Both the position numbers and the translations under genes were made by a program. Positions 31,948 to 64,000 of a stretch of DNA of 64,000 bases are shown here, piece by piece. The first letter of the stretch is position 1. Every line of letters starts with the position of its first letter. This DNA comes from Bradyrhizobium sp. sBnM-33 (GTDB lineage Bacteria; Pseudomonadota; Alphaproteobacteria; Rhizobiales; Xanthobacteraceae), in assembly GCF_032917945.1 (NCBI RefSeq), contig NZ_CP136624.1, positions 2,294,001-2,358,000 of the forward strand, written 5' to 3'. The notes beneath the pieces were generated by a model. The model saw only the letters and a program-made list of their open reading frames with translations, made no database searches and was not told where the DNA came from.

Positions 31948-31957
31948 CGGAGACCTT

Positions 31958-33156: not shown

Positions 33157-33239
33157 GATGGAATACCTGCGAAGTTTCGAAGAAAATCTTTGACGGCTTC
33201 TAGTCGCTCTAAACGGGCTAACCAATCCGGCTATCGCTT

Positions 33240-43795: not shown

Positions 43796-44640
43796 GTGCC
43801 ACCACCTCCAGCAACCGCCTGTCGCACCCGGCCGCCCTTCTTCGCCACGCCGTGTTGCTCGTCACCTGCGCCCTCATCCTCGTCCCATTCGTGTGGATGG
43901 CTTCGCTGTCAATCAAGCCGCCAAGCGAGATATTCCGGGCCAGCTTCTCCTTCTGGCCTGCTCAGTTCTACGGCGTCGAGAACTACACCAAGGCCCTGAC
44001 CGAAGCGCCGCTGCCGCGCTACATGGGCAACGGGGCGATCGTCTGCGCGATCATCCTGGCGCTCCAGATCCTCGTCTGCGCTCCTTGCGCCTATGCGCTC
44101 GCCAAGCTGCGGTTTCCCGGCCGCGACCTGCTCTTCGGCCTAGTGCTGATCGGCCTGCTGCTGCCGCATCAGGTGCTGTCGCTGCCGCTGTTCATCCTCG
44201 GCTACCGGCTCGGCATTCTCAACACCTATGCGGCGCTGGTCTTCCCCTATGTTGTCTCGCCCTTCGGCATCTTCTTGTTCCGACAGTTCTTCAAGACCAT
44301 TCCCGACGACGTGGTCCAAGCCGCGCGCCTCGACGGCCTTTCTGAACTCGCCATCGTCTGGAGGATCATGGTGCCGATGGCGCTGCCGGCGGTCATCGCC
44401 TTCTCGATTTTCTCGGTGGTCAGCCACTGGAACGATCTCTTCTGGCCGCTGATCGCGGTGCGAGACCAGTCTCTGATGCCGCCTCCGCTTGGCATCATGG
44501 CCTTCAAGAACGAGGAGGCCGGCAACGATTACGGCCCACTCATGGCGGCATCCACCCTCGTTGTTATGCCCCTCGTCGTCGCCTTTCTGGCCGCCCAGCG
44601 CTGGTTCGTCGAAGGACTAAGCGGCGGAGCCGTAAAGTGA
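43792..44640 (+). CDS. ABC importer permease 2 (UgpE/MalG type)
   Basis: 282 residues, six membrane helices. The EAA loop reads VVQAARLDGLSELAIVWRIM. ATGA overlap with permease 1. Ends with the usual short cytoplasmic tail (FVEGLSGGAVK). Confidence 0.93.
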   Translation: MSATTSSNRLSHPAALLRHAVLLVTCALILVPFVWMASLSIKPPSEIFRASFSFWPAQFYGVENYTKALTEAPLPRYMGNGAIVCAIILALQILVCAPCAYALAKLRFPGRDLLFGLVLIGLLLPHQVLSLPLFILGYRLGILNTYAALVFPYVVSPFGIFLFRQFFKTIPDDVVQAARLDGLSELAIVWRIMVPMALPAVIAFSIFSVVSHWNDLFWPLIAVRDQSLMPPPLGIMAFKNEEAGNDYGPLMAASTLVVMPLVVAFLAAQRWFVEGLSGGAVK

Positions 44641-44672
44641 ACTGCCGAATCCAATGGAAAGGAAGCCGCCCC

Positions 44673-47461: not shown

Positions 47462-48523
47462 CTACACTGCCAACGCTGCTGTGTAGGTCTCAAGGTCAAC
47501 GTTCGAGCCACTTATAACCGCAACGCTTGTTCTGCCGCGGACATTTAAACGGCCGGCCAAGATGGCCGCAAGTGGCAATATGCCACCTGGCTCTGCGATT
47601 AATCCGAAATGTCGCGCAGCAAAGCGCATCGCCAGTCTGACCTCATGATCAGTGACACTCATACTATGCACACTTCGTCCACACAGAATTCGGAAGGGCA
47701 GATCGCTTGGAGTCGGCGCGAGAAGCGCATCGCAAATACTGGTCGCCTCGGGTGAATTGCGTACCCTATGGCCGAACTTGAGACTGCGAGCCATGTCGTC
47801 AAATCCTAGCGGTTCGATGATCGAAAGTTCAAGCGCGGGGCAAGCAATAGCGCATCCCGCGGCCAACCCGCCTCCACCACATCCCGCGATGATAGCATCG
47901 AGTTTGAGTCCCATCTCCTTTGCTTGGACCTGCACTTCCACGCCCAGGGTCGCCGCACCGGCAATAATTGCGCGGTCATTGTGCGGATGAATAATGGTTG
48001 CACTTCGCTCAAAAGCAATTTCTTTGACAATTTCCTCCCGGTCTTCAGTGCGCCGATCATACATCCGAACTTCCGCTCCGTAAGAGCGCACCGCATCAAC
48101 CTTTACGGTAGGTGCGTCGTGTGGCATGACAATTAAAGCCTTACAGTCCCTTCGTCTTGAGGCCCAAGATACGGCGTGGCCATGGTTCCCCGAAGAATAG
48201 CATACGACCTCATTCCGCAGTTGCTCCGCACGAAGGAAGCTTAGTCGATTTAGCACACCGCGCGTTTTGAAGCTTCCCGTTACTTGTAGTCCTTCCGCTT
48301 TCACAAGAATTCTTCCGCCGACACTATGATTCAGACTCTCGCTCTCCAGAAGCGGCGTCACGCGCACATGATTTTCGATTTCCCTTCGCGCCCGCAGAAC
48401 GTCATCACAGGTCGGCGGCTGTATGAACCAATCCGATAGATCGCTGAACATCTCCACTGGCGCCGATGGGCAAGAAATTTCGGCGGCGCTTCTTCCTATG
48501 CTTGGTTCATCCCCGGTTCTCAT
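47462..48523 (-). CDS. Threonine/serine dehydratase-like PLP enzyme (fold type II)
   Basis: About 353 residues from ATG 48523, with GAGGTGGGGG upstream. PLP lysine in VTGSFKTRGVLN, SSGNHGHAVSWA substrate loop, and the glycine-rich phosphate-binding GCGGGGLAAG. The family deaminates serine, threonine or hydroxyaspartate to the 2-oxo acid, or racemises serine. There is no C-terminal ACT domain, so it is the catabolic rather than the biosynthetic (IlvA) form. Divergent from the alanine-racemase-family gene, with a 197-bp shared promoter region. Confidence 0.87.
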   Translation of the reverse strand: MRTGDEPSIGRSAAEISCPSAPVEMFSDLSDWFIQPPTCDDVLRARREIENHVRVTPLLESESLNHSVGGRILVKAEGLQVTGSFKTRGVLNRLSFLRAEQLRNEVVCYSSGNHGHAVSWASRRRDCKALIVMPHDAPTVKVDAVRSYGAEVRMYDRRTEDREEIVKEIAFERSATIIHPHNDRAIIAGAATLGVEVQVQAKEMGLKLDAIIAGCGGGGLAAGCAIACPALELSIIEPLGFDDMARSLKFGHRVRNSPEATSICDALLAPTPSDLPFRILCGRSVHSMSVTDHEVRLAMRFAARHFGLIAEPGGILPLAAILAGRLNVRGRTSVAVISGSNVDLETYTAALAV

Positions 48524-48720
48524 TGTTACCCCCACCTCGCTGTTAGGTCGTGAGGTTTCTCGATAGCCAGATCGGCGCCGGCGGTCAACATGTACGTACT
48601 TGTGGACATCTATCTGTCATGTTAGTCCGCTATGCCAGATTGCACCGTCAAGTGTGACGGCAACTCAGCCGGTGAGCGAGAGAACTCGGCTGATGCCTAG
48701 AACGCCATGAGAGGTAATGA

Positions 48721-49920
48721 ATGTTGAAGATCTCAACCCCAAGTCGAATTGAGTCGGCCGAGAATATCGCCGCCCGATCTTTTGGCTCTGTGGCCCTAAC
48801 AAGGGCGAATTGGATAGAAATCGATCTGGCAGCGCTGGAACACAATGTCGCTGTCGTGAGATCCATGCTCGAACCCGGCGTTCGTATACATGCTTGCGTG
48901 AAAAGTAGCGCCTATGGATGTGGCGTCGTGGAAGTATCTCAGCGGTTTGCTGCGGCAGGGGTCGACGCCCTGTGCTGCGGCACGTTTGATGAGGCTGTTC
49001 ACATCCGGGCAGCCTTGCCGAAAATGGATCTCATCATGTTTGGGGCAACCTTGCCCGACGGAATCCCAGCATACCTGGAGCATGGTTTGATTCCGAGTGT
49101 CCACAATATTGAACTGGCGCGGGCAGTTTCGCGTTTTGCAACCAGTCCTACCCGCGTTCATATCAAGGTCGACGGAGGTTGGGGCAGATTGGGGATTCCC
49201 TTGCCTCACGCAAAGGATGCCATTCTCGGGATCGCGCGTCTGGCAAACATAGAAATCGAAGCCGTTTATACACACCTTCCATTCACCGATCTGCCGGGCC
49301 GTGATTGGGCGCAACAGCAAACGACGGCGTTCTGCAAACTGATTGACGACCTACGGGCATCCGGTTTGAAGGTGCCTATTACCCAAGCGCGCGCGAGCAA
49401 CGGAGTCGTGTTTGGAATTACTGACGAGTGCAACGCCGTTTCGCTCGGCAGTATTTTGTACGGGAAGTCATCTGCGCCGCGTGATCTTGCCGATTTCTCG
49501 AACCTCCGCCCCGCCTGCCGATCAATCCGCACAAAACTGATACACGTTCATCCTGCTTTTCCAGGCAAAACGGTTGGACGGACGACAGGCCTGCATGGCA
49601 GGCCGACCTCGCCGTTTGTCGGAATCACTGGGGTCATTCCGTTCGGCCGCCGGGACGGGTATGCCGGCGCAAGGTCCGGTGAGACTGCTTATGTGCTGAT
49701 CCATGGCGTAAGGGCTCCAATTCTAGCAGTTAATTCGGAGCTATCGGTTGTTGATCTCTCGGGAGTTCCGGATGCCGGCCTCGGAGATGACGTTATCATT
49801 CTGGGCAAAGACCGTGACGAAGAGATAACCCTCGAGGATCTGTCACATTGGCAGGGGGCAGGTCAAACGGACGTCCTTGTCAGGATGAGCGGGCGGTTGA
49901 CCCGCGTATTTCATCAGTAG
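48721..49920 (+). CDS. Alanine racemase family protein
   Basis: 399 residues, fold type III PLP barrel followed by a beta domain. It reads IHACVKSSAYGCGVVE with the PLP lysine, where housekeeping Alr has AVVKADAYGHG, so the active-site loop is altered (Ser-Ser for Ala-Asp, Cys for His). HIKVDGGWGRLGI matches the conserved KVDTGMGRLG. The divergence suggests a secondary amino-acid racemase (not necessarily alanine). The metallophosphoesterase starts 30 bp after the stop, so they are probably co-transcribed. Confidence 0.85.
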   Translation: MLKISTPSRIESAENIAARSFGSVALTRANWIEIDLAALEHNVAVVRSMLEPGVRIHACVKSSAYGCGVVEVSQRFAAAGVDALCCGTFDEAVHIRAALPKMDLIMFGATLPDGIPAYLEHGLIPSVHNIELARAVSRFATSPTRVHIKVDGGWGRLGIPLPHAKDAILGIARLANIEIEAVYTHLPFTDLPGRDWAQQQTTAFCKLIDDLRASGLKVPITQARASNGVVFGITDECNAVSLGSILYGKSSAPRDLADFSNLRPACRSIRTKLIHVHPAFPGKTVGRTTGLHGRPTSPFVGITGVIPFGRRDGYAGARSGETAYVLIHGVRAPILAVNSELSVVDLSGVPDAGLGDDVIILGKDRDEEITLEDLSHWQGAGQTDVLVRMSGRLTRVFHQ

Positions 49921-49949: not shown

Positions 49950-50762
49950 ATGAAAATAATCCTTATCTCCGATCCTCATATCAAGGTCCGTGGCGAGCGT
50001 GTGCGAGGAGTCGATCCGGTCGAGCGGCTTGAACTTTGCGTTCACAGAGCTCAACAGCTTGCCGGCGATGCCGATCTTTGCGTCATGATGGGCGACAACG
50101 CCGACACGCCGACCGAAGACGAGTACAGGACGCTTTTGGATTGCGTGCGGCCATTAAAGATGCCTGTGCGCTTCCTCATTGGAAACCACGACAATCGGGA
50201 CATGTTTCTCCGCGTTAACCCGGATCTAGAAAGAGACGAAAGAGGATATATCCAGAGTTCTCTTGAAACCGCGACCGAGACACTGCTCTTTCTCGATACT
50301 GGTCGAACCGGCGAACACGAAGGCGACTACTGCAACGAGAAGCTTGATTGGCTGAAGCGAGAGTTATCCAAAGCTGGAGTAAAGCCGGTCTATATCTTCA
50401 TGCATCATCCGCCATTTAGGACTGGGTTCTGGAACGATCACTCCATGGTCCGCCAAGCCGATGATTTCCTGACGGTGCTCAATGAGGCTCGATCGGTACG
50501 CCACATTTTTCTCGGCCATACGCATAGAGCATCCTCTGGCCACTGGAATGGAGTCACCTGGACAACATTGCACGGGACATGTTACGAAAATGATTTTGAG
50601 ATGCTTCCGGCGAAACCGAACTACCGAAGCGGACCGGCCCAGCTAGGTATTCTTCTCATTAATGGTGGCGAAAGCGTCCTGCATTTCCAGGATGTTCTCA
50701 ATCCCTACCCACTGATCGCCTATAGCGGTCGCTCAATTCGCGAGCCCGAAATTGCGGCGTGA
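49950..50762 (+). CDS. Calcineurin-like metallophosphoesterase (CpdA-type)
   Basis: 270 residues from ATG 49950. Dinuclear-metal motifs: ISDPHIK (DxH), MGDNAD (GDxxD), IGNHDNR (GNHD/E), FMHHPPF and LGHTHRA (GHTH). This order is that of class III cyclic-nucleotide phosphodiesterases, but many relatives act on other phosphodiesters or phosphonate esters. Soluble. Same operon as the racemase; GntR regulator downstream. Confidence 0.88.
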   Translation: MKIILISDPHIKVRGERVRGVDPVERLELCVHRAQQLAGDADLCVMMGDNADTPTEDEYRTLLDCVRPLKMPVRFLIGNHDNRDMFLRVNPDLERDERGYIQSSLETATETLLFLDTGRTGEHEGDYCNEKLDWLKRELSKAGVKPVYIFMHHPPFRTGFWNDHSMVRQADDFLTVLNEARSVRHIFLGHTHRASSGHWNGVTWTTLHGTCYENDFEMLPAKPNYRSGPAQLGILLINGGESVLHFQDVLNPYPLIAYSGRSIREPEIAA

Positions 50763-50975: not shown

Positions 50976-51734
50976 ATGACGAGATCCTTTCACGGCGCCG
51001 GCATAAGCCGTTGGCGAGAGATTGGGGAGACACTTATCCGTGAGATTGATCAGGGTATCCTTCTTCCTGGTGACAAACTTCCGGGCGAGATGGATTTGGT
51101 TAATCGCTTCGGGGTAGCGCGCCAGACGATCCGCCGAGCCTTAGCTCATCTGAAAAATGCTGGCCTCCTCGATGTCGAACTCGGCCGCGGCACATTCGTA
51201 GCAAGGAAGGTCTTTGAGTACCGCATTGAGGCTCAAAAGACGCTCGAGCAGAACCTTCTTGATAGCGCCATGACGCCGAGCCGAGAGGTGATCGGCCTCC
51301 ATGTTTCGTCAGCGGCCAAAGGCATCGCAGAAAGGCTTGAGATCGGCGTTGGCGAGCCGGTCTTGATCGTCGACATGCTGGGAAGGGCGGATGGATCACC
51401 AGTCGCGCTGGTTCGAGCCCATTTCCCGGTCGCGCGGATACCGGGCATCGAGGAAGCGTTCAGGGCCATTCTTAGGAAACGTAACCGAACGTTTTCTCAG
51501 ACCAAGCTCCTAGAATTAGTTGGCGTCTCGACGTTTTCCAGACGATTCATTCGGCTGAAGTCTCGTTTCCCAAGTGCCGAGGAAATGCAGCATCTGGGGC
51601 TCTCATCCATCGACATCGTTGTCGAAACGAGCTCTGTGAGCGATGGGACAACAGGTGATCCGGTATTCTATGCGGTTTCATCGTACCCCGGATCGAAAGT
51701 TGAGTTTTATGTCGGAGACATTCAGAACCCGTAG
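50976..51734 (+). CDS. GntR/HutC-family regulator with UTRA domain (PhnF-like)
   Basis: 252 residues. Winged helix about 10-78 (LVNRFGVARQTIRRALAHLK, GRGTFVARK), then a UTRA ligand domain about 95-248. PhnF, a regulator of phosphonate genes, belongs to this subfamily, as do regulators of sugar and amino-acid genes. It lies downstream of the racemase/phosphoesterase genes and tail-to-tail with the MFS exporter gene. Control of the neighbouring clusters is inferred. Confidence 0.88.
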   Translation: MTRSFHGAGISRWREIGETLIREIDQGILLPGDKLPGEMDLVNRFGVARQTIRRALAHLKNAGLLDVELGRGTFVARKVFEYRIEAQKTLEQNLLDSAMTPSREVIGLHVSSAAKGIAERLEIGVGEPVLIVDMLGRADGSPVALVRAHFPVARIPGIEEAFRAILRKRNRTFSQTKLLELVGVSTFSRRFIRLKSRFPSAEEMQHLGLSSIDIVVETSSVSDGTTGDPVFYAVSSYPGSKVEFYVGDIQNP

Positions 51735-51968: not shown

Positions 51969-53219
51969 TCATTGCCGGTCGAGGGGCGGTCGGAACATGG
52001 CATGGTTTCGTATCGCCTGGTAGAAGTAGACCCCACTGACCAGACAAGAAAGCGCCGCGGCACCGAGAACTGCGGTCGTAAAGCCAACAGCGTCGGACAG
52101 CGCCCCCCAAGCCCAGCTGCCAATGGCAAGGCTTCCCGCATTGACTGTCTGATACATCGCGAGCGTTCGGCCAATAAGGGGGCGAGGTGCTGTGACGTGT
52201 ATCGTAGTGTTCAGATAAACAAAGCCTGAGACCCATGAGATCCCTCCGGCGAACGCAGCTATCGCGGCAACTTGAGCGTTTGAGGCGATTGCGAAGAGAA
52301 CCGCGCAAAGTCCAATGCCGGAAAATGCCCCCGCTAACACAAAGTGTTTCGCGACCATATGCCGGCGCCACGACGCAGCGATTAGTCCTCCGCAAACGGC
52401 GCCACACCCGAAGCACGATGTCACAATCCCAAAGCTCCAGGATGAACCATTGGCCGAAAACTTAATAACCGCCGGCAGCAGAGCCGATGCGATGCATGCT
52501 ATAAAACCGAAAATCAGCGTCTCAAAAAGCGCGCGACGAATCGTAATGTGATGCCATGAGAACACGAACCCGATCTTCAGCGTCTCCCAGAACGTTGTCA
52601 CCTTTGTAGGGACTTCTTTGGCCGTTGGCGTCCATCGAAACAGCACTACGAGAAAGATCATGAAGCCGCCACAAGAAACGGCGATGGTGCCGGCGGCTCC
52701 GATCAGGCTTATCAGAAGCCCTGCCAATGCCGGTCCGACGATGCGTGCGATGTTGAAAATGATAGCGTTTGCGCTAACCGCCGCGGGGAGGTCGGCGCCT
52801 TCGACTAGATCACCGATTGATGCCTGCCATGAAGGGTAGCTTAACGCTACACTGCTGCCAATAATCGTCGAGATCAGAAGGAAGCTCCAGGTGGGTGGGG
52901 TTGTAATTGCCAGTATTGTGACAAGAACGAGTGATGCCACAATTGCAAGTCCCTGGGCCAATATTAGAAGCATACGCCTTTCCACGATGTCAGCGACGAC
53001 GCCGAACGGAATGCAAAGCAACGCAAGAGGGAGACTTTGGGTCGACTGAACCAACGCCACGGACGCTATAGATCTCGTGTTATTCGTTAGGCACCACGCG
53101 ATCGTCATAATGTTTACTGAGATACTGATGTTCGCGAGTACGTTAGCTCCAAAGAGGAGCTGAAAGGGACCATTGTATCGTGTCGAGCTGCTGCCCTCTG
53201 GCTGAACGCTGCTGAACAT
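51969..53219 (-). CDS. MFS transporter (MFS_3/EntS-like exporter)
   Basis: 416 residues with 10-12 membrane helices. The loop between helices 2 and 3 reads FGVVADIVERRMLL, the usual GxxxDRxxRR site. This subfamily often exports small secondary metabolites. Such proteins often carry a C-terminal cytoplasmic domain; here a stop follows FRPPLDRQ, and the next ~170 bp still read YRLFRRCRLEDAEVFVHSFN in frame-like fashion, so the C-terminal domain may have been lost. Last gene on the minus strand after the FMN monooxygenase, with a 300-bp gap. Confidence 0.88.
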   Translation of the reverse strand: MFSSVQPEGSSSTRYNGPFQLLFGANVLANISISVNIMTIAWCLTNNTRSIASVALVQSTQSLPLALLCIPFGVVADIVERRMLLILAQGLAIVASLVLVTILAITTPPTWSFLLISTIIGSSVALSYPSWQASIGDLVEGADLPAAVSANAIIFNIARIVGPALAGLLISLIGAAGTIAVSCGGFMIFLVVLFRWTPTAKEVPTKVTTFWETLKIGFVFSWHHITIRRALFETLIFGFIACIASALLPAVIKFSANGSSWSFGIVTSCFGCGAVCGGLIAASWRRHMVAKHFVLAGAFSGIGLCAVLFAIASNAQVAAIAAFAGGISWVSGFVYLNTTIHVTAPRPLIGRTLAMYQTVNAGSLAIGSWAWGALSDAVGFTTAVLGAAALSCLVSGVYFYQAIRNHAMFRPPLDRQ

Positions 53220-54985: not shown

Positions 54986-55357
54986 TCAACGCTTGACTTT
55001 GGCAGCCACCACCGAGATCTCGACGAGTGTGCCTTCCGACAAAGTCGCTCCGATACACATCCGCTGAGGCCAGTGTTGAGGGGTTGCTCCGACCCAAGCG
55101 TTCCACACGTCGTCAAACCTTGCCTTCTGTCGAAGGTCCGAGAGAAAGACTGTCGCAGAAAGCAGATACCGCCTATCGGTACCGAGATCCGCCAGAACGC
55201 CATCAATCTTGCGAAAGCATCGCTTCGCCTGCTCTTCCAAACCAACTCTCTTGTCATCGGAAGTGGCAACCGCAAACGCCAACGAGCTGAAAGCAGAGCC
55301 TGAACTTCTACCTTCGGCAACGCCTTTCGAACGCAGAATTGGCCAATCCTCACCCAT
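54986..55357 (-). CDS. RidA/YjgF/YER057c family protein
   Basis: 123 residues. RidA deaminases hydrolyse reactive enamine/imine intermediates (for example 2-aminoacrylate) to the ketone and ammonia. The key Arg in PQRMCIGA and Glu in TLVEISVVAA are present. It lies between a PLP aminotransferase and an amino-acid-oxidase gene, both of which make imines, so a clean-up role in this pathway fits. Confidence 0.9.
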   Translation of the reverse strand: MGEDWPILRSKGVAEGRSSGSAFSSLAFAVATSDDKRVGLEEQAKRCFRKIDGVLADLGTDRRYLLSATVFLSDLRQKARFDDVWNAWVGATPQHWPQRMCIGATLSEGTLVEISVVAAKVKR

Positions 55358-56582: not shown

Positions 56583-57689
56583 TTACCCATGCAGCCGGGT
56601 TCTGCTGACGGCCGGTTTGAGGCGCGAAGTCCGAAATTCGGTCGGAAGTGCAGAACTCTTCCCAAGCATTTCCTTCGCACTCAGCATGCCGAGCAGGGGG
56701 CCTACCGTGATGCCGCTATGGCATGCCGATACGTAAATTCGATCAAGTTCGGGAAGCCATCCCGCGATTGGGAGTCCATCGGCAGGCACGGGCCGACTGA
56801 CTGCATAAGTTTGAATGTCTGGCGCCTGACTGAACGACGGCACGACTTTGGCTAGTTCTGCGGCCAGTCTCAGCGATTGCGTCAACGCTTCGCCGTCAGT
56901 GCCCTCGAATGAGGCAGTTTGACCTCCCATCATGCGCCCATTGGAGTCGGGTCGGAAATGGAGGTCCCCCGCATAGACGACGTGGTTCAGGATCGACGGC
57001 CGAACTGATGCGGTGAACAGGATTCCAGGATCCTTCGCGACCTCGACCTTATAGCCTAGTTCCTTGGTGAGGTTCGACGTGCCAGATCCTGCCGCGAGGC
57101 AAACGAAAGTGCCATGAACGTTGCCACCGCTGGTGGCAATACACACTTCATCCCGCCGCGTTTCAATGTGCAGAGCCGTTGCAGTTACTGCCGTTAGTAG
57201 TCCGGTCTCTATCGCGGCCTGCCTGAGGCGGCCAATAAAAGAGATGCTGTCGATCCACCCTTCGTCTGTCAGTCGTATGATCGGACCTTGAACGTCCCTC
57301 AGGCGTAGATTTGGCTCCAAACGCCGCTGCACGTCGTCGGGTGTCCAATATTCGACAGCGACACCCATCCGTTGAAGACGAGACGCAATATCTTGAAGCT
57401 TTTCTCTGCTTGATCCGGTGTCGCCCCAACGAAGCGTGCCAGATAAATGAAAATGTTTCGCGGCGCGAACTTCCTCTGCGAGCTTCTCGCTGAAGCTGAT
57501 AGCCTTTCGTCGAAAACTGAAATATGGTTCTTCAACAAAGCTGAAGTAATTAATGCACGCAAATGTGCGCGATGATCCGATGCCGATTGGAGCGTGCTCA
57601 TCAACGATAACGACTTCGCAACCATGCTTCGTAAGATGATAAGCGATTGATGTCCCCACGATCCCGCCGCCAATAATAATCACCCTCAT
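56583..57689 (-). CDS. FAD-dependent amino-acid oxidase/dehydrogenase (DAO family)
   Basis: About 368 residues. N-terminal dinucleotide fold VIIIGGGIVGTSIAYHL (GxGxxG) and VVIVDEHAP, C-terminal SRPVPADGLPIAGWLPE with the conserved GxPxxG. Same family as DadA and sarcosine/glycine oxidase: oxidises an amine to an imine, probably passing electrons to the membrane or oxygen. Start taken at ATG 57689 (GAGG upstream; 57695 also possible). The preceding SDR gene ends 30 bp upstream. No signal peptide. Confidence 0.9.
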   Translation of the reverse strand: MRVIIIGGGIVGTSIAYHLTKHGCEVVIVDEHAPIGIGSSRTFACINYFSFVEEPYFSFRRKAISFSEKLAEEVRAAKHFHLSGTLRWGDTGSSREKLQDIASRLQRMGVAVEYWTPDDVQRRLEPNLRLRDVQGPIIRLTDEGWIDSISFIGRLRQAAIETGLLTAVTATALHIETRRDEVCIATSGGNVHGTFVCLAAGSGTSNLTKELGYKVEVAKDPGILFTASVRPSILNHVVYAGDLHFRPDSNGRMMGGQTASFEGTDGEALTQSLRLAAELAKVVPSFSQAPDIQTYAVSRPVPADGLPIAGWLPELDRIYVSACHSGITVGPLLGMLSAKEMLGKSSALPTEFRTSRLKPAVSRTRLHG

Positions 57690-57719
57690 TGCCATATCCT
57701 CTTCGTGGTGCTGCTGCAT

Positions 57720-58520
57720 CTATCTGCACGCGGTAAGGCCGCCATCGACATACAGAATCTGCCCAGTCACAAAACGCGACAGCGCCGACGCGAGGAAATG
57801 TACCGCGCCCGCGACATCGGCTGGTGTTGCCAAGCGACCGAGAGGAACATCCGCCGTGGCCCGCTGAAACGTCGCTGCGTCCTCAAGAGCCTTGTCGTTC
57901 TTGTGAGTTCGTACCGCGCCCGGGGCGACACCATTAACGGTGATGCCGTTGGGCGCCAATTCGGTTGCGTGCTGCTTCAAAAGGACAGCCAGCCCACCCT
58001 TTGCAGCGCAGAAGGCGCTGTATCCACGGTCTCGGAAGCCAAGTGATGACCGAACCGAAAGAAGATGAATCTGGCTGCCGCCGTTTCCGGCCGCAACTTG
58101 ATGAGCGCCCACCGCCTGAGAAAGAAACATTCCTGCGCGCAATGTCCTGGAATAGACTTCATCGAAGGCTTCCTCCGTCACCTCGAGCAGCTTCTGCTCC
58201 TTATTGAAGCCGACACAGTTCACCAGAATGTCGATCGAACCATACTGTTGCCTCAGAGAAGCAGAGAGATTTCGCACTGCGCCGACATCGCACGCGTCGA
58301 GCTCGACACCTTGGACAGAGAAACCTTTGTCGCTTAGTTCCGCGGCAAGAGCTTGCGTCCGGTCGCCATTTGGTCCTGCAATAATGCTGGTCGCGCCGGC
58401 AATGGCCAACGTTTCGGATATTGTTGTGCCGATAGCTCCGTAGCCGCCGACGACTAATGCGACTTTGCCGTGCAGGCTCATCGAATGCTGAGACTGGGCG
58501 CCCACGTTCTGAATGATCAT
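57720..58520 (-). CDS. SDR-family oxidoreductase, catalytic Tyr replaced
   Basis: 266 residues, Rossmann fold. Cofactor motif VVGGYGAIGTTI, NAG-equivalent NCVG, catalytic Ser in LLSVRSSLG, C-terminal SRFVTGQILYVDGG. The usual YxxxK reads FCAAK (GYSAFCAAKGG): the Lys is kept but Tyr is Phe, with another Tyr three residues before. It may be a non-oxidoreductase or altered enzyme. ATGA overlap with the SelA-like gene. Confidence 0.88.
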   Translation of the reverse strand: MIIQNVGAQSQHSMSLHGKVALVVGGYGAIGTTISETLAIAGATSIIAGPNGDRTQALAAELSDKGFSVQGVELDACDVGAVRNLSASLRQQYGSIDILVNCVGFNKEQKLLEVTEEAFDEVYSRTLRAGMFLSQAVGAHQVAAGNGGSQIHLLSVRSSLGFRDRGYSAFCAAKGGLAVLLKQHATELAPNGITVNGVAPGAVRTHKNDKALEDAATFQRATADVPLGRLATPADVAGAVHFLASALSRFVTGQILYVDGGLTACR

Positions 58521-60115
58521 TCCAGTCTCCCCTGGGTTGGCGCGACAACCTGCGTGGCATCAATCGACTTATCCGGGGTTACGTGGACGTGTGTTGCATG
58601 CCATTCCGCAGAACCGTATTGGCCTTTGAAGACCGGCCCGAGATGTTCTTTGGCGGTGCCGCCCAGTCGAACTGTTCCACTGATGGAGCCATCCTCTGCG
58701 AATTCGCCCTCGAACCCGTAGAATAGCCAAATCGGCACCTGCTCGTGCGCAGCCTCGAAGTGGGTATGGCGGCCATGAACTTCACCAGATACGGCGCCCG
58801 AGGACGATCCCGTGTGATGGATGCCAGATATGAGCTCGCCGTTCTGCTGAATGTTGAGATGGTGTGTCGCCGAACCATGAAGGAAGTGCATTTCGACACG
58901 CCAACTGCCCGAGACATCTATTTCTGCAAGAAAGTTGGGGGCAGGTTGAGCAATGGACCGAGGCTGACGAAATGCGATTGCCAAAGCGTGGCCGACAATC
59001 TCCGCCTCGTCATCGGAGAGATTCACGGGATCCAGTATGATCGAGGTCGGCGTGGACCAGAAATCGTGGATCAGGATCCGCGGTCGTTGTTGCAAGAGCG
59101 CAAGCCTTAGGTCTTCCGAATTAAACGGAATAACAGCCGCATCCCAGCTCACCTTCAGCCGAACAGCTGTCACAGAACCGGCCCAGGACAGCACTTCCGT
59201 CGTAACGCCTGGCAGCGAGCTGAGGTGAGTCTCAATCCGCTTCAATCGAGGAATCCACTGGTCGCGTTCGTCTTTCGCCGACTGAAAATTGATCCAGCGA
59301 TCGAGCGCGACTACGGCGCCGACCACCTCCTCCTTGCCGACCTTCATTGACCGGCCAAATGCCTGGTGAGGCGCTCCATTCCACCAGATCGCCTTGCAAA
59401 GCCGCTCCTTGCCAAGCACGATCGCAGTGGATTGTGGCGCACGGATATATTTGCCACCTGCGTAAACCACCAAGTCGGCTCCGTTCTTGATCCAGCGATC
59501 CGGCTTTCCTGGCGAAAGGCCGGCGGCATCGACGAGAATGGGCACACCGTGCGCACGCGCGAAGGGAAGGAACGAGCTTAGTGGTAATACCGACGCAGCG
59601 TCCATGCGACCGAGGAGGCAGATCATCGCGATGCTTCCATCCAACGCCTGCGCCAACTCCTCTATCCTCGCAATGCTGACAATCTCGGCACCCGCGACGC
59701 GGAACGCCTGTTCGTAGGCAAAACGTTGATCGCAGGGGATCAACACCTTGTTGCGCAGCCCCGATGTGTCCGGTAACCGCAACATCAGCTCCGGATTGTT
59801 TCCGGCAATGCACGCTGCCGTGGCTAACGCTAGCGTCGCTGCAGTGCCGGCGGTGATGACACCCCATTCGGCGCCGGTGAGTTCAGCCATCCTTCGGCCT
59901 GCGCCTTCAGCGAGTTCGTCCATGTCGACAAAAGCCTCGGCAGCCGCGTTCATTGCGGCGATGACCTCGTCGCTCGGATTGCTTGCTCCATAAGTCGTGC
60001 GGACACCGGCGCATTGGATGAACGGCTCGACGCCGAGTTCCCGGTAGATCCAGCCGCACGTGTGGTCTCGTTCGGACAGATCGCGTGCCTGTATGGATTC
60101 AGGCCGCGTATTCAT
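58517..60115 (-). CDS. SelA/DgaE-like PLP enzyme with C-terminal beta domain
   Basis: 532 residues. The first ~395 are a fold type I PLP protein of the SelA/DgaE group: GVEPFIQCAGVRTTYGASNP, VDMDELAEGAGRRMAELTGA, VITAGTAATLALATAACIAG, and the PLP lysine in VVYAGGKYIRAPQ. DgaE is a D-glucosaminate-6-phosphate ammonia-lyase; other members are lyases or transferases of unknown role. Residues about 405-530 form an extra domain (SGSWRVEMHFLHGSATHHL, SGIHHTGSSSGAVSGEV, SGTVRLGG), probably all-beta. Overlaps CDP-alcohol phosphatidyltransferase and SDR genes by ATGA at both ends, so it is tightly co-expressed with them. Reaction unknown; lyase or aminophosphonate-modifying roles are guesses. Confidence 0.82.
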   Translation of the reverse strand: MNTRPESIQARDLSERDHTCGWIYRELGVEPFIQCAGVRTTYGASNPSDEVIAAMNAAAEAFVDMDELAEGAGRRMAELTGAEWGVITAGTAATLALATAACIAGNNPELMLRLPDTSGLRNKVLIPCDQRFAYEQAFRVAGAEIVSIARIEELAQALDGSIAMICLLGRMDAASVLPLSSFLPFARAHGVPILVDAAGLSPGKPDRWIKNGADLVVYAGGKYIRAPQSTAIVLGKERLCKAIWWNGAPHQAFGRSMKVGKEEVVGAVVALDRWINFQSAKDERDQWIPRLKRIETHLSSLPGVTTEVLSWAGSVTAVRLKVSWDAAVIPFNSEDLRLALLQQRPRILIHDFWSTPTSIILDPVNLSDDEAEIVGHALAIAFRQPRSIAQPAPNFLAEIDVSGSWRVEMHFLHGSATHHLNIQQNGELISGIHHTGSSSGAVSGEVHGRHTHFEAAHEQVPIWLFYGFEGEFAEDGSISGTVRLGGTAKEHLGPVFKGQYGSAEWHATHVHVTPDKSIDATQVVAPTQGRLE

Positions 60116-60735
60116 GGCAGTCCCCTAGTCGCAAGTACGATGGATGCCCCAACACAAAATGCCATGACGACGAGGTACATGACGCCAGCCGTCTTCGGCA
60201 CTCGGAGGGGGGCAATGTGCAGGACAGCAAGTACGACGAGGACGAACGCGAACAGGTTCGGGAAGATCACCTCGGAGATGACCGGACGAAGCAAGAAAAT
60301 GATTGCCGTTACCGGTACCACGTAGGTGGTCGGCACTCCGATGAACCGGCTACCCGGAGATCCGAATACGTTGAAGTAGCTTAGCCGCAAGGCACTGGCC
60401 ACAACGAGAATGGTTCCCGCGGCAACGGAGATCGTTGAGCCATGGCCAATGATTATCGATGTTACGGCCGGAAAGACACCGGCACTCACCAAATCGGCGA
60501 GGGAATCCAGATTCTTGCCGATCTGTCCTGTCTCTGCCGGGCGGCCCTGCGTCCGCTGGGCCACGACCCCGTCGAGGTGATCAGCCAGCAACGCCCAGAG
60601 CACGACGGCTACCCCGATCTCCGGAAGGCCGGCGATTGCCAGGTTGATACCGATGGCGGAGAGCACAAGGCCTGTTGCAGTCACGGCGTTGGCCGGATCG
60701 ATAAGTTGGCGGAGCATTGGATCCTCCCTCATCAC
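60112..60735 (-). CDS. CDP-alcohol phosphatidyltransferase family protein (PssA-like)
   Basis: About 205 residues, 5-6 membrane helices, inner membrane. The family signature is present as DHLDGVVAQRT then GKNLDSLAD (DxxDG, GxxxDxxxD), with AQ in place of AR and a longer spacer. Family enzymes use a CDP- or CMP-activated donor to form a phosphodiester lipid. Next to a cytidylyltransferase-like gene and pepM, transfer of a CMP-activated phosphonate onto a lipid alcohol is a reasonable hypothesis. Confidence 0.88.
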   Translation of the reverse strand: MMREDPMLRQLIDPANAVTATGLVLSAIGINLAIAGLPEIGVAVVLWALLADHLDGVVAQRTQGRPAETGQIGKNLDSLADLVSAGVFPAVTSIIIGHGSTISVAAGTILVVASALRLSYFNVFGSPGSRFIGVPTTYVVPVTAIIFLLRPVISEVIFPNLFAFVLVVLAVLHIAPLRVPKTAGVMYLVVMAFCVGASIVLATRGLP

Positions 60736-60747
60736 ACAAGCCGATGC

Positions 60748-61539
60748 TCAAACGGCTCGGCTGACGAGCGGCGGCGACGCGGTTGCGAAGATGTTTTCAG
60801 CGATCCGCAAATCCTCCGTGCTGTCGATCTCATACCAACGGAGATCGTCACAACGCGCCGCAGCAAGCTGTAGCCCGCGTCTTTGGACGAGATAGGCGAG
60901 AAGCTCCTCGGTGTACGCCTGTGTGGCACCTGAACCGATGATGTCTTCCAGCGAAGGGACAATCGTCTTTGTCAGCGTAACGGAATTAAACCGCAGTATA
61001 TTCATTGTCTTGAACAGTACCGGGCCGTCCCCGTCGAGGTCCGCTGCCGTCTGCTTCATCCGGAACGCAGAAATAAGTCCATTCTCTGAGAGCGTTACGG
61101 CAGACCCTTGCATGCTCGAATCGAACGGTGCAACCGCGGCAACGTCGTCGGCATCGGCAACGTTGAGATAGCGGAGCGCGTCCACCTCAAAGAAGACGTC
61201 ACCTTCCAAGAGGTAGCAGTCTCCAGAAAGAAGCGCATCACGCGCTAGCCATAGGGAATAAGCGCTGCCAGTGCGGTCGAAAACGGTTGACTCGACATAC
61301 TTGATCTCAAGCCCGCCGAAGCGGCTGCCGCAGGCATATTGAATGGCGTCCTTGCGATAGCCGACGACGATCGTCACCTCTTCGACGCCGACTGCCTCCA
61401 GGTTTCGCAGGGCATTGTGGAGGATCGGTGTGCCGTTGACCTCGACCAGGGGCTTCGGCCGCAGATCCGTCAGCGGTCGCAGGCGAGAGCCGAAGCCGGC
61501 GGCGAGAATGATGGCTTTCTTTGGAGCATTGGTAGCCAT
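60748..61539 (-). CDS. Nucleotidyltransferase (LicC/PntC-like)
   Basis: 263 residues from ATG 61539 (AAGGGG upstream). NTP-binding start AIILAAGFGSRLRPLTDLRPKPLVEV, acceptor site EGDVFF, FKTMNILRF and the end WYEIDSTEDLRIAENIF, as in phosphocholine and 2-aminoethylphosphonate cytidylyltransferases. With PEP mutase in the same cluster the likely reaction is CTP + aminophosphonate to CMP-phosphonate (PntC role). A sugar-nucleotide pyrophosphorylase is the alternative. 12 bp upstream of the phosphatidyltransferase. Confidence 0.85.
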   Translation of the reverse strand: MATNAPKKAIILAAGFGSRLRPLTDLRPKPLVEVNGTPILHNALRNLEAVGVEEVTIVVGYRKDAIQYACGSRFGGLEIKYVESTVFDRTGSAYSLWLARDALLSGDCYLLEGDVFFEVDALRYLNVADADDVAAVAPFDSSMQGSAVTLSENGLISAFRMKQTAADLDGDGPVLFKTMNILRFNSVTLTKTIVPSLEDIIGSGATQAYTEELLAYLVQRRGLQLAAARCDDLRWYEIDSTEDLRIAENIFATASPPLVSRAV

Positions 61540-61574
61540 TTCATTCCCCTTCATCGTTGCGCGATATCGCTTCG

Positions 61575-61830
61575 TCATTCACAGGCGTTGAGGACTTCAA
61601 CGAGCCGGCTCAGGCCGGTCTCGAGTGTGTCAGGTGGAATTCCATAGGAGAGGCGAATGCCTACGGGGTCCCCGAATGCGATGTCGGATACGGTCGCGAC
61701 GCGGGCTTCGCAAGCAGCGTGTTTACGATGTCGGCGGCTGTCCTTGCACCGTTTCCGAATGTCTGTCGCAGCAGATCGGAACGGTTGAAATGGAAATAGA
61801 AAACACCTTGGAATTCCAGGCATGATGTCA
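61575..61830 (-). pseudogene. Aminotransferase C-terminal remnant
   Basis: A duplicate of the tail of the aminotransferase next to it: GVFYFHFNRSDLLRQ and ADIVNTLLAKPA in one frame, then VATVSDIAFGDPVGIRLSYGI and LSRLVEVLNACE in another, against GGFYFYLDLSELQRQ and VATVSGTAFGDPAGIRLSYGI. Diverged, so an old tandem paralogue reduced to its last ~85 codons. Confidence 0.78.
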
Positions 61831-61836
61831 CCGTCT

Positions 61837-63060
61837 TCAACTACAAGCGCCTTGCGGAGCCAGGGAGTCAGTCCACGTGTTCACAGTTGCGGTCAGACGC
61901 CGCAAGCCTTTGCCGAGCAATTCGAGATCGATGCCGTAGGAGAGCCGGATCCCGGCGGGGTCGCCAAAGGCTGTGCCCGAAACCGTTGCGACACCAGCGT
62001 CCATCAGCAACGTTTTAACGACGTCATCGGCGCTGAATTCGCGGCCATGGGCCTTGGCCTGCCGCTGCAATTCGCTGAGATCGAGATAGAAGTAAAATCC
62101 ACCTTGGGCGGCAGGTTGGGGTACCGATGTCAGCGTTGAAAGGATCGAGAGCCCGAGCGCCCGCGCGTTGGCAACTTGGCGCTGCAACTGCAATTGGTAT
62201 GCAGGACCGCCGCACTCGAGGTAATGGAGCAGCGCGTGCTGTGCAATGACATTGGGATTGGAGGTTGTATGGCTTTGCAGCGCTCTAACCGCGCCTATGA
62301 CCGCCTCGGGGCCTGCAAGATAGCCAATCCGCCAGCCGGTCAGGGCCAATGACTTGGAAAACGAATTGACGATCAAAGTGCGATCGCGTGCCCGGGGCGC
62401 AACCGAGACGATCGGATGATGGGTATGTGGGGCATGGGCGAAAGCTCCGTAGCATTCATCGAAGATGATCCAGAGATCCCGGTCGATGGCGAGTTGGGCA
62501 ATGCCAGCAAGAGTGTCGCGGTCGTAGATCGCACCGGTCGGATTGTTCGGCGTGTTGACCACGATCGCCTTAGTCTTTGGTGTAACGGCCGCGGCCAGGT
62601 CCGTAAGGCTCGGCACATAGCTATTATGCCGGGTCTCGATAAACACCGGCGTGCCGCCGGCAACGACGATCTGGGCCGGGAAAGTAGTCCAGTAGGGGGC
62701 CGGGATCAGCACTTCGTCCCCGGGATTCAGAAGAGCCATGGCCGCATTGAAGAGCGCCTGTTTGGCGCCGTTCGTCACCGCGATTTCGTCTGCCGACCAG
62801 GGTTGAGCGGTCTCGGCGGAAATCTTGCGAGCAAGCGCATGTCGCAACTCCATCAGACCGAGCGTGTCAGTGTAGCGGTTGACGTTGCGATTAATTGCGG
62901 CGATCGCGCCCTCGCGCACCGAGGCCGCCAGGTCACTCCAGATCTCTCCGGCGGTCAGATCGATTATCTCCTTGCCGTTCGCGGCAGCTGCTTTGGCAGC
63001 GGTTCTCGCGGCGGCCGTGCCTGACGACTTGAACAGAACTGTTCGTTGCGCCAACATCAT
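61837..63060 (-). CDS. Class I aminotransferase (AspAT Ibeta type)
   Basis: 407 residues from ATG 63060 with GGAG upstream. Fold type I PLP enzyme: IDLTAGEIWSDLAASVREGA, VTNGAKQALFNAAMALLNPG, NTPNNPTGAIYD, PLP lysine in VNSFSKSLALTGWRIG, carboxylate Arg in GIRLSYGI. In this cluster it is well placed to aminate phosphonopyruvate, the pepM product, to phosphonoalanine, or to act on a later oxo-phosphonate. Its relative at 31958-33156 sits with phosphonopyruvate hydrolase, which supports such a substrate. Confidence 0.88.
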   Translation of the reverse strand: MMLAQRTVLFKSSGTAAARTAAKAAAANGKEIIDLTAGEIWSDLAASVREGAIAAINRNVNRYTDTLGLMELRHALARKISAETAQPWSADEIAVTNGAKQALFNAAMALLNPGDEVLIPAPYWTTFPAQIVVAGGTPVFIETRHNSYVPSLTDLAAAVTPKTKAIVVNTPNNPTGAIYDRDTLAGIAQLAIDRDLWIIFDECYGAFAHAPHTHHPIVSVAPRARDRTLIVNSFSKSLALTGWRIGYLAGPEAVIGAVRALQSHTTSNPNVIAQHALLHYLECGGPAYQLQLQRQVANARALGLSILSTLTSVPQPAAQGGFYFYLDLSELQRQAKAHGREFSADDVVKTLLMDAGVATVSGTAFGDPAGIRLSYGIDLELLGKGLRRLTATVNTWTDSLAPQGACS

Positions 63061-63430
63061 CGCTCTCCGTCGATCCAATGTAGCCTATGGTTGCTGCTGT
63101 GGCGCGAGGTCTAGCGGAGTCCTTGAAAATGAGACCCCACAAACCAAAAAAGACGGATCATCGTCCGTTTCGGCCTTTCGCCGAGAGAGAAATAAGCTCC
63201 TAGCTCTTCTTCGGGGACTAGGTGGCCATGGAGATAAGAGATCGGGCCGAGATAAGGCAGAAATGTACAGGTCGGCCGAGTAAGAGCTGTGGCGCCATTT
63301 GATGATACGGCCAATGCCAGAAGGGCAAACAAATGCTTCGTTTGCGATTGCAGTGGAGCGTGACGATAGGGCAGGCGGTCGCATCGCAGCAGTCCTTCGA
63401 GAATGAGTATGTTGTTGTGTGGATGACAAG
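63061..63430. other. Intergenic between pepM and the aminotransferase
   Basis: 370 bp, no supported gene. It may hold a separate promoter for the aminotransferase-cytidylyltransferase operon. Confidence 0.4.
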
Positions 63431-64000
63431 CTATTGCCGTGGGTCAGGGGGGTGGAGATATCGCGCTTCCGCACGGGCGAGCTCGTCGTACCTCAACAAA
63501 TCGAAGACCTCATCGAGCGTTGCGATATCTGGCTCAATGCCGGCAATGCCTTCCTCAGCGATAATGCGGCCGCAGACGTGCCGCATTGCCGCTATTGCAG
63601 CTCGCATGGAGTGGTTGGCCCAGATCACTGTGGAGATGCTGGCATCCCGATATTTAGAGACCGGTGTTCGATAGTATTTCGTTGGAACGATTACGACTGG
63701 TAGGCAGTTCTGCCAGGCACTCGCGAACGAGAGGATCTCGTCCGCGGTGCTCTTGCGCGAGTGAATGAGGATCGCGTCGGCTCCCGCGGCCGCGTAAGCG
63801 CTAGCGCGTAAAATTGCCTCGTCCATTCCATGGCCGGCGATCAGCGCTTCGATCCGGGCCACGAGGACCAAGTCGTCCGCGACTGTATCTTTCACTGCCC
63901 GCAGCCGGCCGGAAAATTCGTCGATATCGGCTAGAGGATGCCTATCGCCAACAAACGAGTTCATCTTCGGAAAACAGCTGTCCTCCAGCGCAATCCCGGC
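63431..64000 (-). CDS. pepM: Phosphoenolpyruvate mutase, C-terminal part (5' end outside window)
   Basis: Interconverts PEP and 3-phosphonopyruvate, the entry step of nearly all C-P biosynthesis. At the window edge it reads ALEDSCFPKMNSFVGD: the Asn of the PEP-mutase motif EDKxxPKxNS is present (Lys of EDK is Ser). Further mutase marks are ARIEALIAGHGMDEAI, ILIHSRKSTADE, VIVPTKYYRTP and VIWANHSMRA. These differ from the two hydrolase-type paralogues at 31075 and 39255, which have Thr in the motif and lack KYY. No phosphonopyruvate decarboxylase (ppd) is seen inside the window. About 190 residues are visible. Confidence 0.9.
   Translation of the reverse strand, partial: AGIALEDSCFPKMNSFVGDRHPLADIDEFSGRLRAVKDTVADDLVLVARIEALIAGHGMDEAILRASAYAAAGADAILIHSRKSTADEILSFASAWQNCLPVVIVPTKYYRTPVSKYRDASISTVIWANHSMRAAIAAMRHVCGRIIAEEGIAGIEPDIATLDEVFDLLRYDELARAEARYLHPPDPRQ

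What the first reader, a model, noticed from the sequence alone, without database searches (positions are those of the whole stretch)
58517..64000. Candidate phosphonolipid-type (C-P) biosynthesis operon: pepM, aminotransferase, PntC-like cytidylyltransferase, PssA-like phosphatidyltransferase
A PEP mutase with the Asn motif, a phosphonopyruvate-type aminotransferase, a LicC/PntC-like nucleotidyltransferase and a CDP-alcohol phosphatidyltransferase follow each other on one strand, the last few genes with 4-12 bp spacing. Known knowledge: pepM starts phosphonate synthesis, and PntC-type enzymes make CMP-aminophosphonates. Inference: the membrane enzyme uses CMP-phosphonoalanine (or another CMP-phosphonate) to make a lipid with a C-P headgroup. 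The absence of a visible phosphonopyruvate decarboxylase points to phosphonoalanine instead of aminoethylphosphonate. The SelA-like and SDR genes are translationally coupled to it and would be additional tailoring steps. I do not know a described cluster with this exact set.
Basis: partly seen in the sequence, partly recalled or inferred. Interest (0 to 1): 0.85.

Follow-up and report, generated by a model that had tools for sequence, protein, structure and literature searches.

The report
Rhizobial make-and-eat phosphonate gene locus
Root-nodule bacteria appear to carry one linked set of genes that builds and exports a small molecule with a carbon-phosphorus bond, and beside it genes that take up and break down such a molecule, an arrangement resembling the 'opine' deals of other plant bacteria and not expected of a plain membrane-lipid pathway.

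Summary
The four genes are real and intact. PepM continues 405 bp past the window and meets the PEP-mutase cut-off; aminotransferase, LicC/PntC-like cytidylyltransferase and CDP-alcohol phosphotransferase (CAP) follow. No phosphonopyruvate decarboxylase reaches the family cut-off in the genome, so phosphonoalanine is the likely phosphonate. The pairing is conserved: of 265 Bradyrhizobium genomes 54 carry PphA and 50 of these also CAP (81 of 265 do); 34 of 41 same-contig pairs lie within 50 kb. Sixteen of the window's genes stand in the same order and orientation on a Sinorhizobium meliloti plasmid. 79 of 81 CAP genomes carry nodA; here the locus lies between nifH and nodA. Best reading: a soluble, CMP-activated phosphonoalanine ester that is exported, re-imported and degraded, like an opine. 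Acceptor, product and role are unproven; no NifA/sigma-54 promoter signal was found. The phosphonolipid remains the main rival.

The parts
63431..64000 (-). pepM (PEP mutase); 3' part, gene continues 405 bp past the window end (L005:1432-2406, 324 aa)
   Evidence: TIGR02320 over cut-off; 1m1b E 1.5e-93; Asn motif
61837..63078 (-). class I aminotransferase, proposed phosphonopyruvate to phosphonoalanine
   Evidence: PF00155, aspartate-aminotransferase-like; 34% identical to the PalB-like enzyme of L094
60748..61578 (-). PntC/LicC-like cytidylyltransferase
   Evidence: E125 and E224 invariant in 18 of 18 and aligned to Tde-PntC E104/E196
60112..60735 (-). CDP-alcohol phosphotransferase (CAP), PssA-like fold
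   Evidence: PF01066; D52 D55 G56 A59 G73 D77 D81 invariant in 21 of 21; model pLDDT 94.3, the four Foldseek hits with E<=0.001 are all phosphatidylserine synthase chains
58517..60115 (-). SelA/DgaE-like PLP ammonia-lyase family protein with an extra C-terminal part; tailoring, reaction unknown
   Evidence: TIGR01437 164 bits, below cut-off 385.3, over residues 23-377 of 532
57720..58520 (-). SDR oxidoreductase
   Evidence: PF13561; fused to the SelA-like gene in S. meliloti RRI128
56583..57719 (-). FAD-dependent amine-oxidase-type protein (DAO)
   Evidence: PF01266
55413..56561 (-). MocR-type aminotransferase domain without the DNA-binding part
   Evidence: NF052286 profile positions 96-452 only, below cut-off
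54986..55357 (-). RidA-like protein
   Evidence: PF01042
53519..54931 (-). NtaA/DmoA-type flavin monooxygenase
   Evidence: TIGR03860 523 bits over cut-off 279.7
51969..53219 (-). MFS_3 exporter-type transporter, 299 bp after the monooxygenase gene
   Evidence: PF05977 E 4.9e-75; gap
50976..51734 (+). PhnF-type GntR/UTRA regulator
   Evidence: TIGR02325 176.8 bits over cut-off 156.8
49950..50762 (+). GpdQ-like metallophosphoesterase, no signal peptide seen by eye
   Evidence: best solved relative 2zo9 (with 2zoa, 3d03) E 1.9e-24, labelled 'Phosphohydrolase' (the name GpdQ for it is recalled); start read
48721..49920 (+). alanine/serine-racemase-like
   Evidence: TIGR00492 185.4 bits over cut-off 168; VanT serine racemase model 190.8 bits, below its cut-off 460
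47462..48535 (-). PLP enzyme of the threonine/serine dehydratase fold (PALP)
   Evidence: PF00291 E 3e-65
41640..45941 (+). Ugp-type ABC importer: ATPase 41640-42815, permeases 42815-43795 and 43792-44640, binding protein 44637-45941
   Evidence: ATPase 406.6 bits to the UgpC model, below its cut-off 432
40325..41188 (-). LysR regulator
   Evidence: PF00126
39255..40199 (-). phosphonopyruvate hydrolase (PphA/PalA)
   Evidence: TIGR02321 407.5 bits over cut-off 374.4; 2dua E 4.1e-111; EDKTFPKVTS, Thr in place of the PepM Asn
37309..38946 (+). porin
   Evidence: PF02530; homologue near PphA in several other loci
31958..33225 (-). PalB-like aminotransferase, broken (two overlapping frames)
   Evidence: an uninterrupted homologue exists elsewhere in the genome (L112)
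31075..31947 (-). second phosphonopyruvate-hydrolase-like gene
   Evidence: TIGR02321 368.4 bits, just under cut-off 374.4
29753..30661 (-). second LysR regulator
   Evidence: PF00126

Best explanation
The operon makes a small, water-soluble phosphonate ester and the neighbouring genes take it back up and degrade it. Proposed steps: PepM turns PEP into phosphonopyruvate (family assignment shown, activity inferred); the aminotransferase makes phosphonoalanine (inferred); the PntC-like enzyme makes CMP-phosphonoalanine (inferred); the CDP-alcohol phosphotransferase passes the phosphonate from CMP to a small alcohol, perhaps serine because its nearest relatives are serine-using PssA enzymes (inferred, weak); SelA-like, SDR, DAO, MocR-aminotransferase, RidA and the flavin enzyme tailor it; the MFS protein exports it. 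The other half imports it (porin, Ugp-type ABC), cuts the ester (GpdQ-like or, elsewhere, NPP-type phosphodiesterase), transaminates phosphonoalanine (PalB-like) and hydrolyses phosphonopyruvate to pyruvate and phosphate (PphA). The linkage of the two halves is shown; that it works like an opine or rhizopine in nodules is inference.
For: Family cut-offs met for PepM, PphA and PhnF. In 265 Bradyrhizobium genomes: CAP 81, PphA 54, both 50 (Fisher 1.2e-27); 41 of 50 on one contig, 34 within 50 kb, 39 within 110 kb. NPP-type phosphodiesterase in 55, 50 of them with CAP; 47 of 50 on one contig, 42 within 20 kb. Within 139 strongly nodA-positive genomes the PphA-CAP link stays (49 both, 2 PphA only, 30 CAP only, 58 neither; p 3e-14). 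Second set: of 35 PLSDB plasmids with PphA at least 14 also carry CAP, each pair within 31 kb by the listed coordinates (60 of 70 CAP rows shown). On S. meliloti pRRI128_3 sixteen window genes stand in the same order and orientation: pepM, AT, NT, CAP, SelA, SDR, MocR-AT, MFS, then facing them GpdQ-like (60%), racemase (52%), binding protein (55%), two permeases (80, 75%), ATPase (72%), then LysR and PphA, with PalB between. Similar two-part layouts in R. indigoferae, R. gallicum, M. huakuii and S. meliloti ml47. No Ppd over cut-off. Both halves meet at phosphonopyruvate/phosphonoalanine. Among 12 loci binding proteins are 27-45% identical except three close pairs (62-87%), the permease 67-89%, as expected if receptors track a diversifying ligand, though binding proteins often diverge faster anyway.
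Against: No activity, product or acceptor is known. CAP belongs to a membrane phospholipid-synthase family. 31 of 81 CAP genomes lack PphA, 12 of 81 lack both PphA and NPP; 21 of 35 PphA plasmids show no CAP among the rows listed. The window's own palB is broken, IS elements lie in the catabolic part, and this genome has no NPP at E<=1e-60. The window's DAO, flavin enzyme, PALP, PhnF and porin have no reported match on the S. meliloti stretch, whose MFS gene is split by an IS. No convincing sigma-54/NifA signal: 9 of 58 upstream regions (pepM 8 of 39, pphA 1 of 19) against 164 of 1220 background windows. 8 of 20 further Bradyrhizobium loci have pepM-NT-CAP without this AT. Two PepM of other loci (L072, L080) read QDS for EDS at the motif. 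Relatedness and island transfer inflate the Fisher values. The genome also has a C-P lyase gene phnJ, so PphA is not its only C-P route.
Confidence: 0.52

Rival explanations
1. Phosphonolipid: CAP transfers phosphonoalanine (or a derivative) from CMP to a lipid alcohol such as diacylglycerol, giving a membrane lipid with a C-P headgroup; the catabolic genes recycle or scavenge related compounds.
For: CAP is a CDP-alcohol phosphotransferase with a PssA-like fold; CMP-activated aminophosphonates are known (PMC6697681, parts 1-3 of 8 read); a related pepM/ppd/AEPT/NTPT/CDP-APT cluster is published as phosphonolipid in Nostoc (PMC5987646, passages).
Against: Conserved linkage to a binding-protein ABC importer, phosphodiesterases without a visible signal peptide, PalB and PphA; an exporter-type MFS gene lies at the end of the gene run, an EamA-type transporter in another variant (by reading).
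Confidence: 0.25
2. Secreted bioactive phosphonate (antimetabolite or competition factor): the operon makes a small phosphonate natural product; PphA/PalB give self-protection or recycling and the importer is for uptake by kin.
For: Phosphonate natural products are often antibiotics or herbicides (start of abstract of PMC12871164); variable tailoring genes and exporter-type genes.
Against: PphA would not act on a tailored ester before it is cut; Bradyrhizobium sp. 4 keeps only the uptake/degradation half, as expected of a nutrient more than of an antibiotic. I did not look for target or resistance genes.
Confidence: 0.13
3. Neutral neighbourhood: phosphonate synthesis and degradation genes merely accumulate on the same symbiosis islands and plasmids, without a shared metabolite.
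For: The region is rich in IS elements and duplicated fragments; island genes travel together.
Against: Conserved order and orientation in Bradyrhizobium, Sinorhizobium, Rhizobium and Mesorhizobium loci; the association holds within nodA-positive genomes; both halves share the same intermediates.
Confidence: 0.1

Closest known systems
PntC phosphonyl-tailoring pathways (Treponema denticola, Atopobium rimae; PMC6697681, parts 1-3 of 8 read)
   Same: PepM plus cytidylyltransferase next to it; the two Glu placed near the AEP amine in Tde-PntC (E104, E196) are matched by invariant E125 and E224
   Different: No ppd over cut-off; separate PssA-like phosphotransferase; Bradyrhizobium PepM mostly reads EDS instead of the EDK of the survey motif (24 of 37 readable matches), so that motif filter would drop them
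Phosphonolipid-type clusters (pepM, ppd, AEPT, NTPT, CDP-APT; Nostoc/Burkholderia, PMC5987646, passages)
   Same: pepM, NTP transferase and CDP-alcohol phosphatidyltransferase together
   Different: aspartate-aminotransferase-like step in place of ppd/AEPT; linked import and C-P hydrolysis genes
Phosphonoalamide pathway (PnaD/PnaA, Streptomyces; PMC11867202, passages)
   Same: phosphonopyruvate transaminated by an enzyme compared there with aspartate aminotransferase
   Different: there the product is joined to peptides by ATP-grasp ligases; none was seen in this operon
Phosphonoalanine degradation, Variovorax sp. Pal2 PalA/PalB (reference title seen; rest recalled)
   Same: phosphonopyruvate hydrolase with transaminase and LysR; solved hydrolase 2dua is the best relative
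   Different: here linked to C-P biosynthesis and to an importer/phosphodiesterase module
Opine/rhizopine loci (recalled)
   Same: synthesis and uptake/catabolism genes linked on a symbiotic or virulence element; strains with catabolism only
   Different: C-P compound; no host-encoded or NifA-type control shown

Membership tests
PEP mutase (PepM) | TIGR02320 cut-off | tested here: met
   329.7 against 319.55 bits
PEP mutase (PepM) | Asn of the EDKXXXXXNS motif | tested here: met
   EDSCFPKMNS; Asn in 37 of 37 PepM matches readable by the pattern and in 3 more read by eye (L072, L080, L084); the other two of 42 are a second piece (L047) and a degenerate fragment (L092)
PEP mutase (PepM) | Lys of EDK in that motif | tested here: not met
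   Ser here and in 24 of 37 matches; Lys in 12 and Thr in 1
PntC cytidylyltransferase | GXG(T/S)RX4-8PK signature | tested here: met
   GFGSRLRPLTDLRPK
PntC cytidylyltransferase | two Glu near the aminophosphonate amine (Tde-PntC E104, E196) | tested here: met
   E125, E224 invariant in 18 of 18; profile alignment to 6pd1. The residue at the place of Lys153 is not an invariant Lys
PntC cytidylyltransferase | CTP plus aminophosphonate activity | not testable with these tools
   needs an enzyme assay
CDP-alcohol phosphotransferase | DxxDGxxAR(x)nGxxxDxxxD (pattern recalled) | tested here: met
   Asp, Gly and Ala positions invariant in 21 of 21; the Arg is Gln here and varies, with a longer spacer than in PssA
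Phosphonolipid cluster | ppd present | tested here: not met
   best hit in the genome 141.8 against 312.5 bits
Phosphonolipid cluster | lipid product | not testable with these tools
   needs chemistry
Phosphonopyruvate hydrolase (PalA/PphA), window 39255-40199 | TIGR02321 cut-off and Thr at the Asn site | tested here: met
   407.5 against 374.4 bits; EDKTFPKVTS in the window protein; Thr in 17 and Ser in 3 of 20 PphA matches
Opine/rhizopine-type system | synthesis and catabolism genes linked | tested here: met
Opine/rhizopine-type system | on the symbiotic element | tested here: met
   between nifH (1979262) and nodA (2591235) of this genome; 79 of 81 CAP genomes strongly nodA-positive
Opine/rhizopine-type system | bacteroid-type (sigma-54/NifA) control | tested here: not met
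   9 of 58 upstream regions against 164 of 1220 background windows; crude recalled consensus
Opine/rhizopine-type system | product used as nutrient by linked genes | not testable with these tools
   needs growth tests

The most novel reading that the evidence does not exclude
Rhizobia own a family of 'phosphono-opines': CMP-activated phosphonoalanine esters with strain-specific tailoring, made in or around nodules and recovered by matching importers, esterases and a C-P hydrolase, with consumer-only strains such as Bradyrhizobium sp. 4 (PphA, NPP, importer, nodA, but no pepM or CAP by these searches) living off producers.
Probability: 0.35. Interest if true: 0.93.

Novelty: new variant of a known kind. 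Interest (0 to 1): 0.8.

Why it matters
If true, a stable C-P compound is a private P, N and C currency in legume symbiosis, a new chemical class for the opine concept, and a direct way to test cheating and partner fidelity among rhizobia. It would also offer a reason why pepM is so common in nodulating Bradyrhizobium (106 of 139 strongly nodA-positive genomes have a pepM match at E<=1e-60, some of them partial copies).

Tried and rejected
A housekeeping PssA was considered and rejected: CAP sits beside NT in 21 of 21 loci and in 16 of the 20, and scores below the PssA cut-off (75.2 against 107 bits). A sugar-phosphate specificity of NT is less likely because of the PntC-type Glu pair, though LicC is the best-scoring solved relative. 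A NifA/sigma-54 control was sought and not found. Sigma-70 and terminator scans were at shuffle level. Serine as acceptor was kept only as a weak lead.

Literature searches: 'PntC/phosphonate/nucleotidyltransferase', 'pepM/phosphonate/Bradyrhizobium', 'phosphonolipid/CDP-alcohol phosphatidyltransferase', 'phosphonoalanine/aminotransferase/phosphonopyruvate', 'phosphonate biosynthesis/rhizobia/symbiosis island', 'phosphonopyruvate hydrolase/phosphonate/rhizob', 'opine/phosphonate/PEP mutase' (55, none), 'phosphoenolpyruvate mutase/symbio/Mesorhizobium' (72, none), 'rhizopine/phosphonate', 'phosphonopyruvate hydrolase/pepM'. No listing or abstract start described such a linked locus; beyond listings I saw parts 1-3 of 8 of PMC6697681 and passages of PMC10708946, PMC11867202, PMC12871164 and PMC5987646. 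Subscription papers are mostly not held, so this is no proof that it is unpublished. PMC10708946 reports a pepM/ppd/pdh cluster in a free-living Bradyrhizobium without symbiosis island: pepM in this genus is not only symbiotic, and 8 of the 114 pepM genomes here lack strong nodA.

Dropped or weak rows: the pepM count of 114 includes G055, whose hit is its PphA, and a few genomes with only partial or stop-bearing copies (for example G099, G182, G191). nodA: the tool counts 160 of 265 over its cut-off; I used the 139 with strong E-values. The first promoter count (10 of 59) wrongly sliced L047; one search gives 9 of 58. In one search the plasmid locus L105 was missed by my gene caller; its figures come. 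Several loci overlap or share a genome (for example L062/L085, L079/L087, L067/L089), so counts over loci are not independent.


Full report
Observation. The window lies in a 9.18 Mb one-contig genome (G000:C1:2294001-2358000); same-genus relatives whose contigs are named in the databases are Bradyrhizobium. pepM runs on to G000:C1 2358405, 324 aa, and is intact. Spacing is tight from NT to the flavin enzyme (12 bp, two ATGA overlaps, 0, 21, 55 and 54 bp) and looser upstream (352 and 258 bp) and before the MFS gene (299 bp).

Core cassette. A pattern-based scan of 84,980 species genomes with the phosphotransferase (CAP) gave 21 loci; in 16 of 21 pepM, AT, NT and CAP stand in order on one strand, in Bradyrhizobium, Mesorhizobium, Sinorhizobium, Phyllobacterium, Rhizobium/Xaviernesmea and two alphaproteobacterial MAGs. 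In 20 further loci that I chose from the Bradyrhizobium CAP genomes, NT is present in 16, pepM in 15 and AT in 8. In eight of the 20 pepM-NT-CAP stand without AT; four of these have a HisC/CobD-like gene after CAP (by reading) and two a MocR-type aminotransferase-like gene. What follows CAP varies: SelA-SDR, MocR-aminotransferase with methyltransferases, asparagine-synthase-like, formyltransferase-like (names are from Pfam where one search covers them, otherwise by reading). Of 81 CAP genomes 79 also have a pepM match.

Enzyme assignments. PepM carries the Asn of its motif but EDS for EDK; two other loci read QDS. The NT family (18 sequences) keeps R32, K42 and, aligned by profile to T. denticola PntC, E125 and E224 at the places of E104 and E196, which in that structure are placed to contact the amine of AEP; LicC has Asp there according to the paper. 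CAP keeps the Asp residues of its superfamily; its model (pLDDT 94.3) matches phosphatidylserine synthase best, the only four hits with E<=0.001. No phosphonopyruvate decarboxylase reaches cut-off in the genome. Together these favour CMP-phosphonoalanine as intermediate; none of this is an activity.

The missed half. In the same window lie PphA 39255-40199 (over cut-off; best solved relative phosphonopyruvate hydrolase 2dua, E 4.1e-111), a second PphA-like gene with a broken PalB-like aminotransferase, two LysR genes, a Ugp-type ABC importer, a GpdQ-like phosphoesterase (2zo9, E 1.9e-24), a racemase-like gene, a PLP dehydratase-type enzyme, a porin and a PhnF regulator. A further copy of the second PphA, with an uninterrupted PalB-like match and Ugp genes, lies near 2.235 Mb (L112).

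Linkage statistics. PphA (E<=1e-80) is in 54 of 265 Bradyrhizobium genomes, CAP (E<=1e-10) in 81; 50 carry both, 4 PphA alone, 31 CAP alone, 180 neither. 41 of the 50 have both on one contig: 34 within 50 kb, 39 within 110 kb, median 24 kb; 9 are on different contigs. The NPP-type phosphodiesterase (PF01663; E<=1e-60) is in 55, of which 50 with CAP; 42 of 47 same-contig pairs are within 20 kb. 69 of 81 CAP genomes have PphA or NPP; 12 have neither. Strong nodA is in 139 of 265 and in 79 of 81 CAP genomes; within nodA-positive genomes the PphA-CAP association remains. These genomes are related and the islands move, so p-values overstate independence.

Plasmid set. CAP matches 70 of 72,556 PLSDB plasmids, all from Rhizobium, Sinorhizobium, Mesorhizobium and one Bradyrhizobium; PphA matches 35, including a few non-rhizobia; at least 14 carry both, 3 to 31 kb apart by the listed coordinates, and 21 show no CAP in the 60 of 70 rows listed. 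S. meliloti RRI128 pRRI128_3 has pepM, AT, NT, CAP, SelA-SDR fusion, MocR-AT, MFS (split by an IS), facing GpdQ-like, racemase, binding protein, two permeases, ATPase and NPP, then LysR, PalB, PphA, RidA and FAD / 2Fe-2S / FAD oxidoreductase genes; sixteen of these correspond to window genes in the same order and orientation. The window's DAO, flavin enzyme, PALP, PhnF and porin have no reported match there. Similar layouts are in R. indigoferae, S. meliloti ml47, M. huakuii and R. gallicum, where pepM is about 10 kb from nifH and NT is split over two frames. M. japonicum MAFF303099 pMLa has the biosynthetic cassette. Bradyrhizobium sp. 4 p4_1 has importer, NPP-type, PphA, LysR and porin genes; its genome is nodA-positive without CAP or pepM by these searches (that G189 is sp. 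4 rests on equal plasmid length and equal PphA coordinates).

Interpretation. A pathway whose product is only a membrane lipid does not predict a binding-protein importer, phosphodiesterases without visible signal peptides and a C-P hydrolase beside it across genera; a soluble ester that is exported and recovered does. Permeases are 67-89% identical between 12 loci while binding proteins are 27-45%, apart from three pairs of 62-87%; the binding protein closest to the window's among the loci examined (55%) belongs to L105, the locus that shares most of its genes. Serine as acceptor is suggested only by the PssA likeness and the racemase and dehydratase-type genes.

Limits. No chemistry, no expression, no promoter support. 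The opine-like role is a hypothesis; the phosphonolipid is the main rival.

Noticed in passing
window 61575-61823 (-): Short ORF between AT and NT whose C-terminal sequence resembles the end of the AT gene (read by eye): a likely duplication or recombination scar.
   Followed up: no
G000:C1 2217693, 2357434, 2496777: Three pepM copies in about 280 kb of this genome; the third has stops inside and sits beside an NT fragment.
   Followed up: partly
window 29753-33225 and L112:6107-11316: Duplicated LysR-PphA-PalB block (94-99% DNA identity, PphA proteins identical); palB broken in the window copy, uninterrupted match in the other.
   Followed up: partly
L005:4610-5494 (+): LuxR-like regulator by reading, about 2.2 kb upstream of pepM; cluster members occur in four other loci (L062, L085, L088, L093), of which L062 and L085 are the same region.
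   Followed up: no
L105:38677-40600: FAD / 2Fe-2S / FAD oxidoreductase genes after PphA and RidA in S. meliloti, an arrangement that recalls opine oxidases (recalled; first gene best matches ThiO, below cut-off).
   Followed up: partly
L106:8849-15603 (M. japonicum MAFF303099 pMLa): Variant with two aminotransferases and a malate/lactate-type dehydrogenase (over cut-off) inside the cassette, asparagine-synthetase-like gene downstream.
   Followed up: no
PLSDB plasmids of Bradyrhizobium from Acmispon strigosus (H82-H88, H90): Eight plasmids with PphA; the only Bradyrhizobium plasmid with CAP in PLSDB is that of strain 187, so these are candidates for catabolism-only plasmids; only sp. 4 was examined.
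   Followed up: partly
L072, L080 (PepM): PepM of these two loci reads QDS instead of EDS at the motif; whether such copies are active is open.
   Followed up: no
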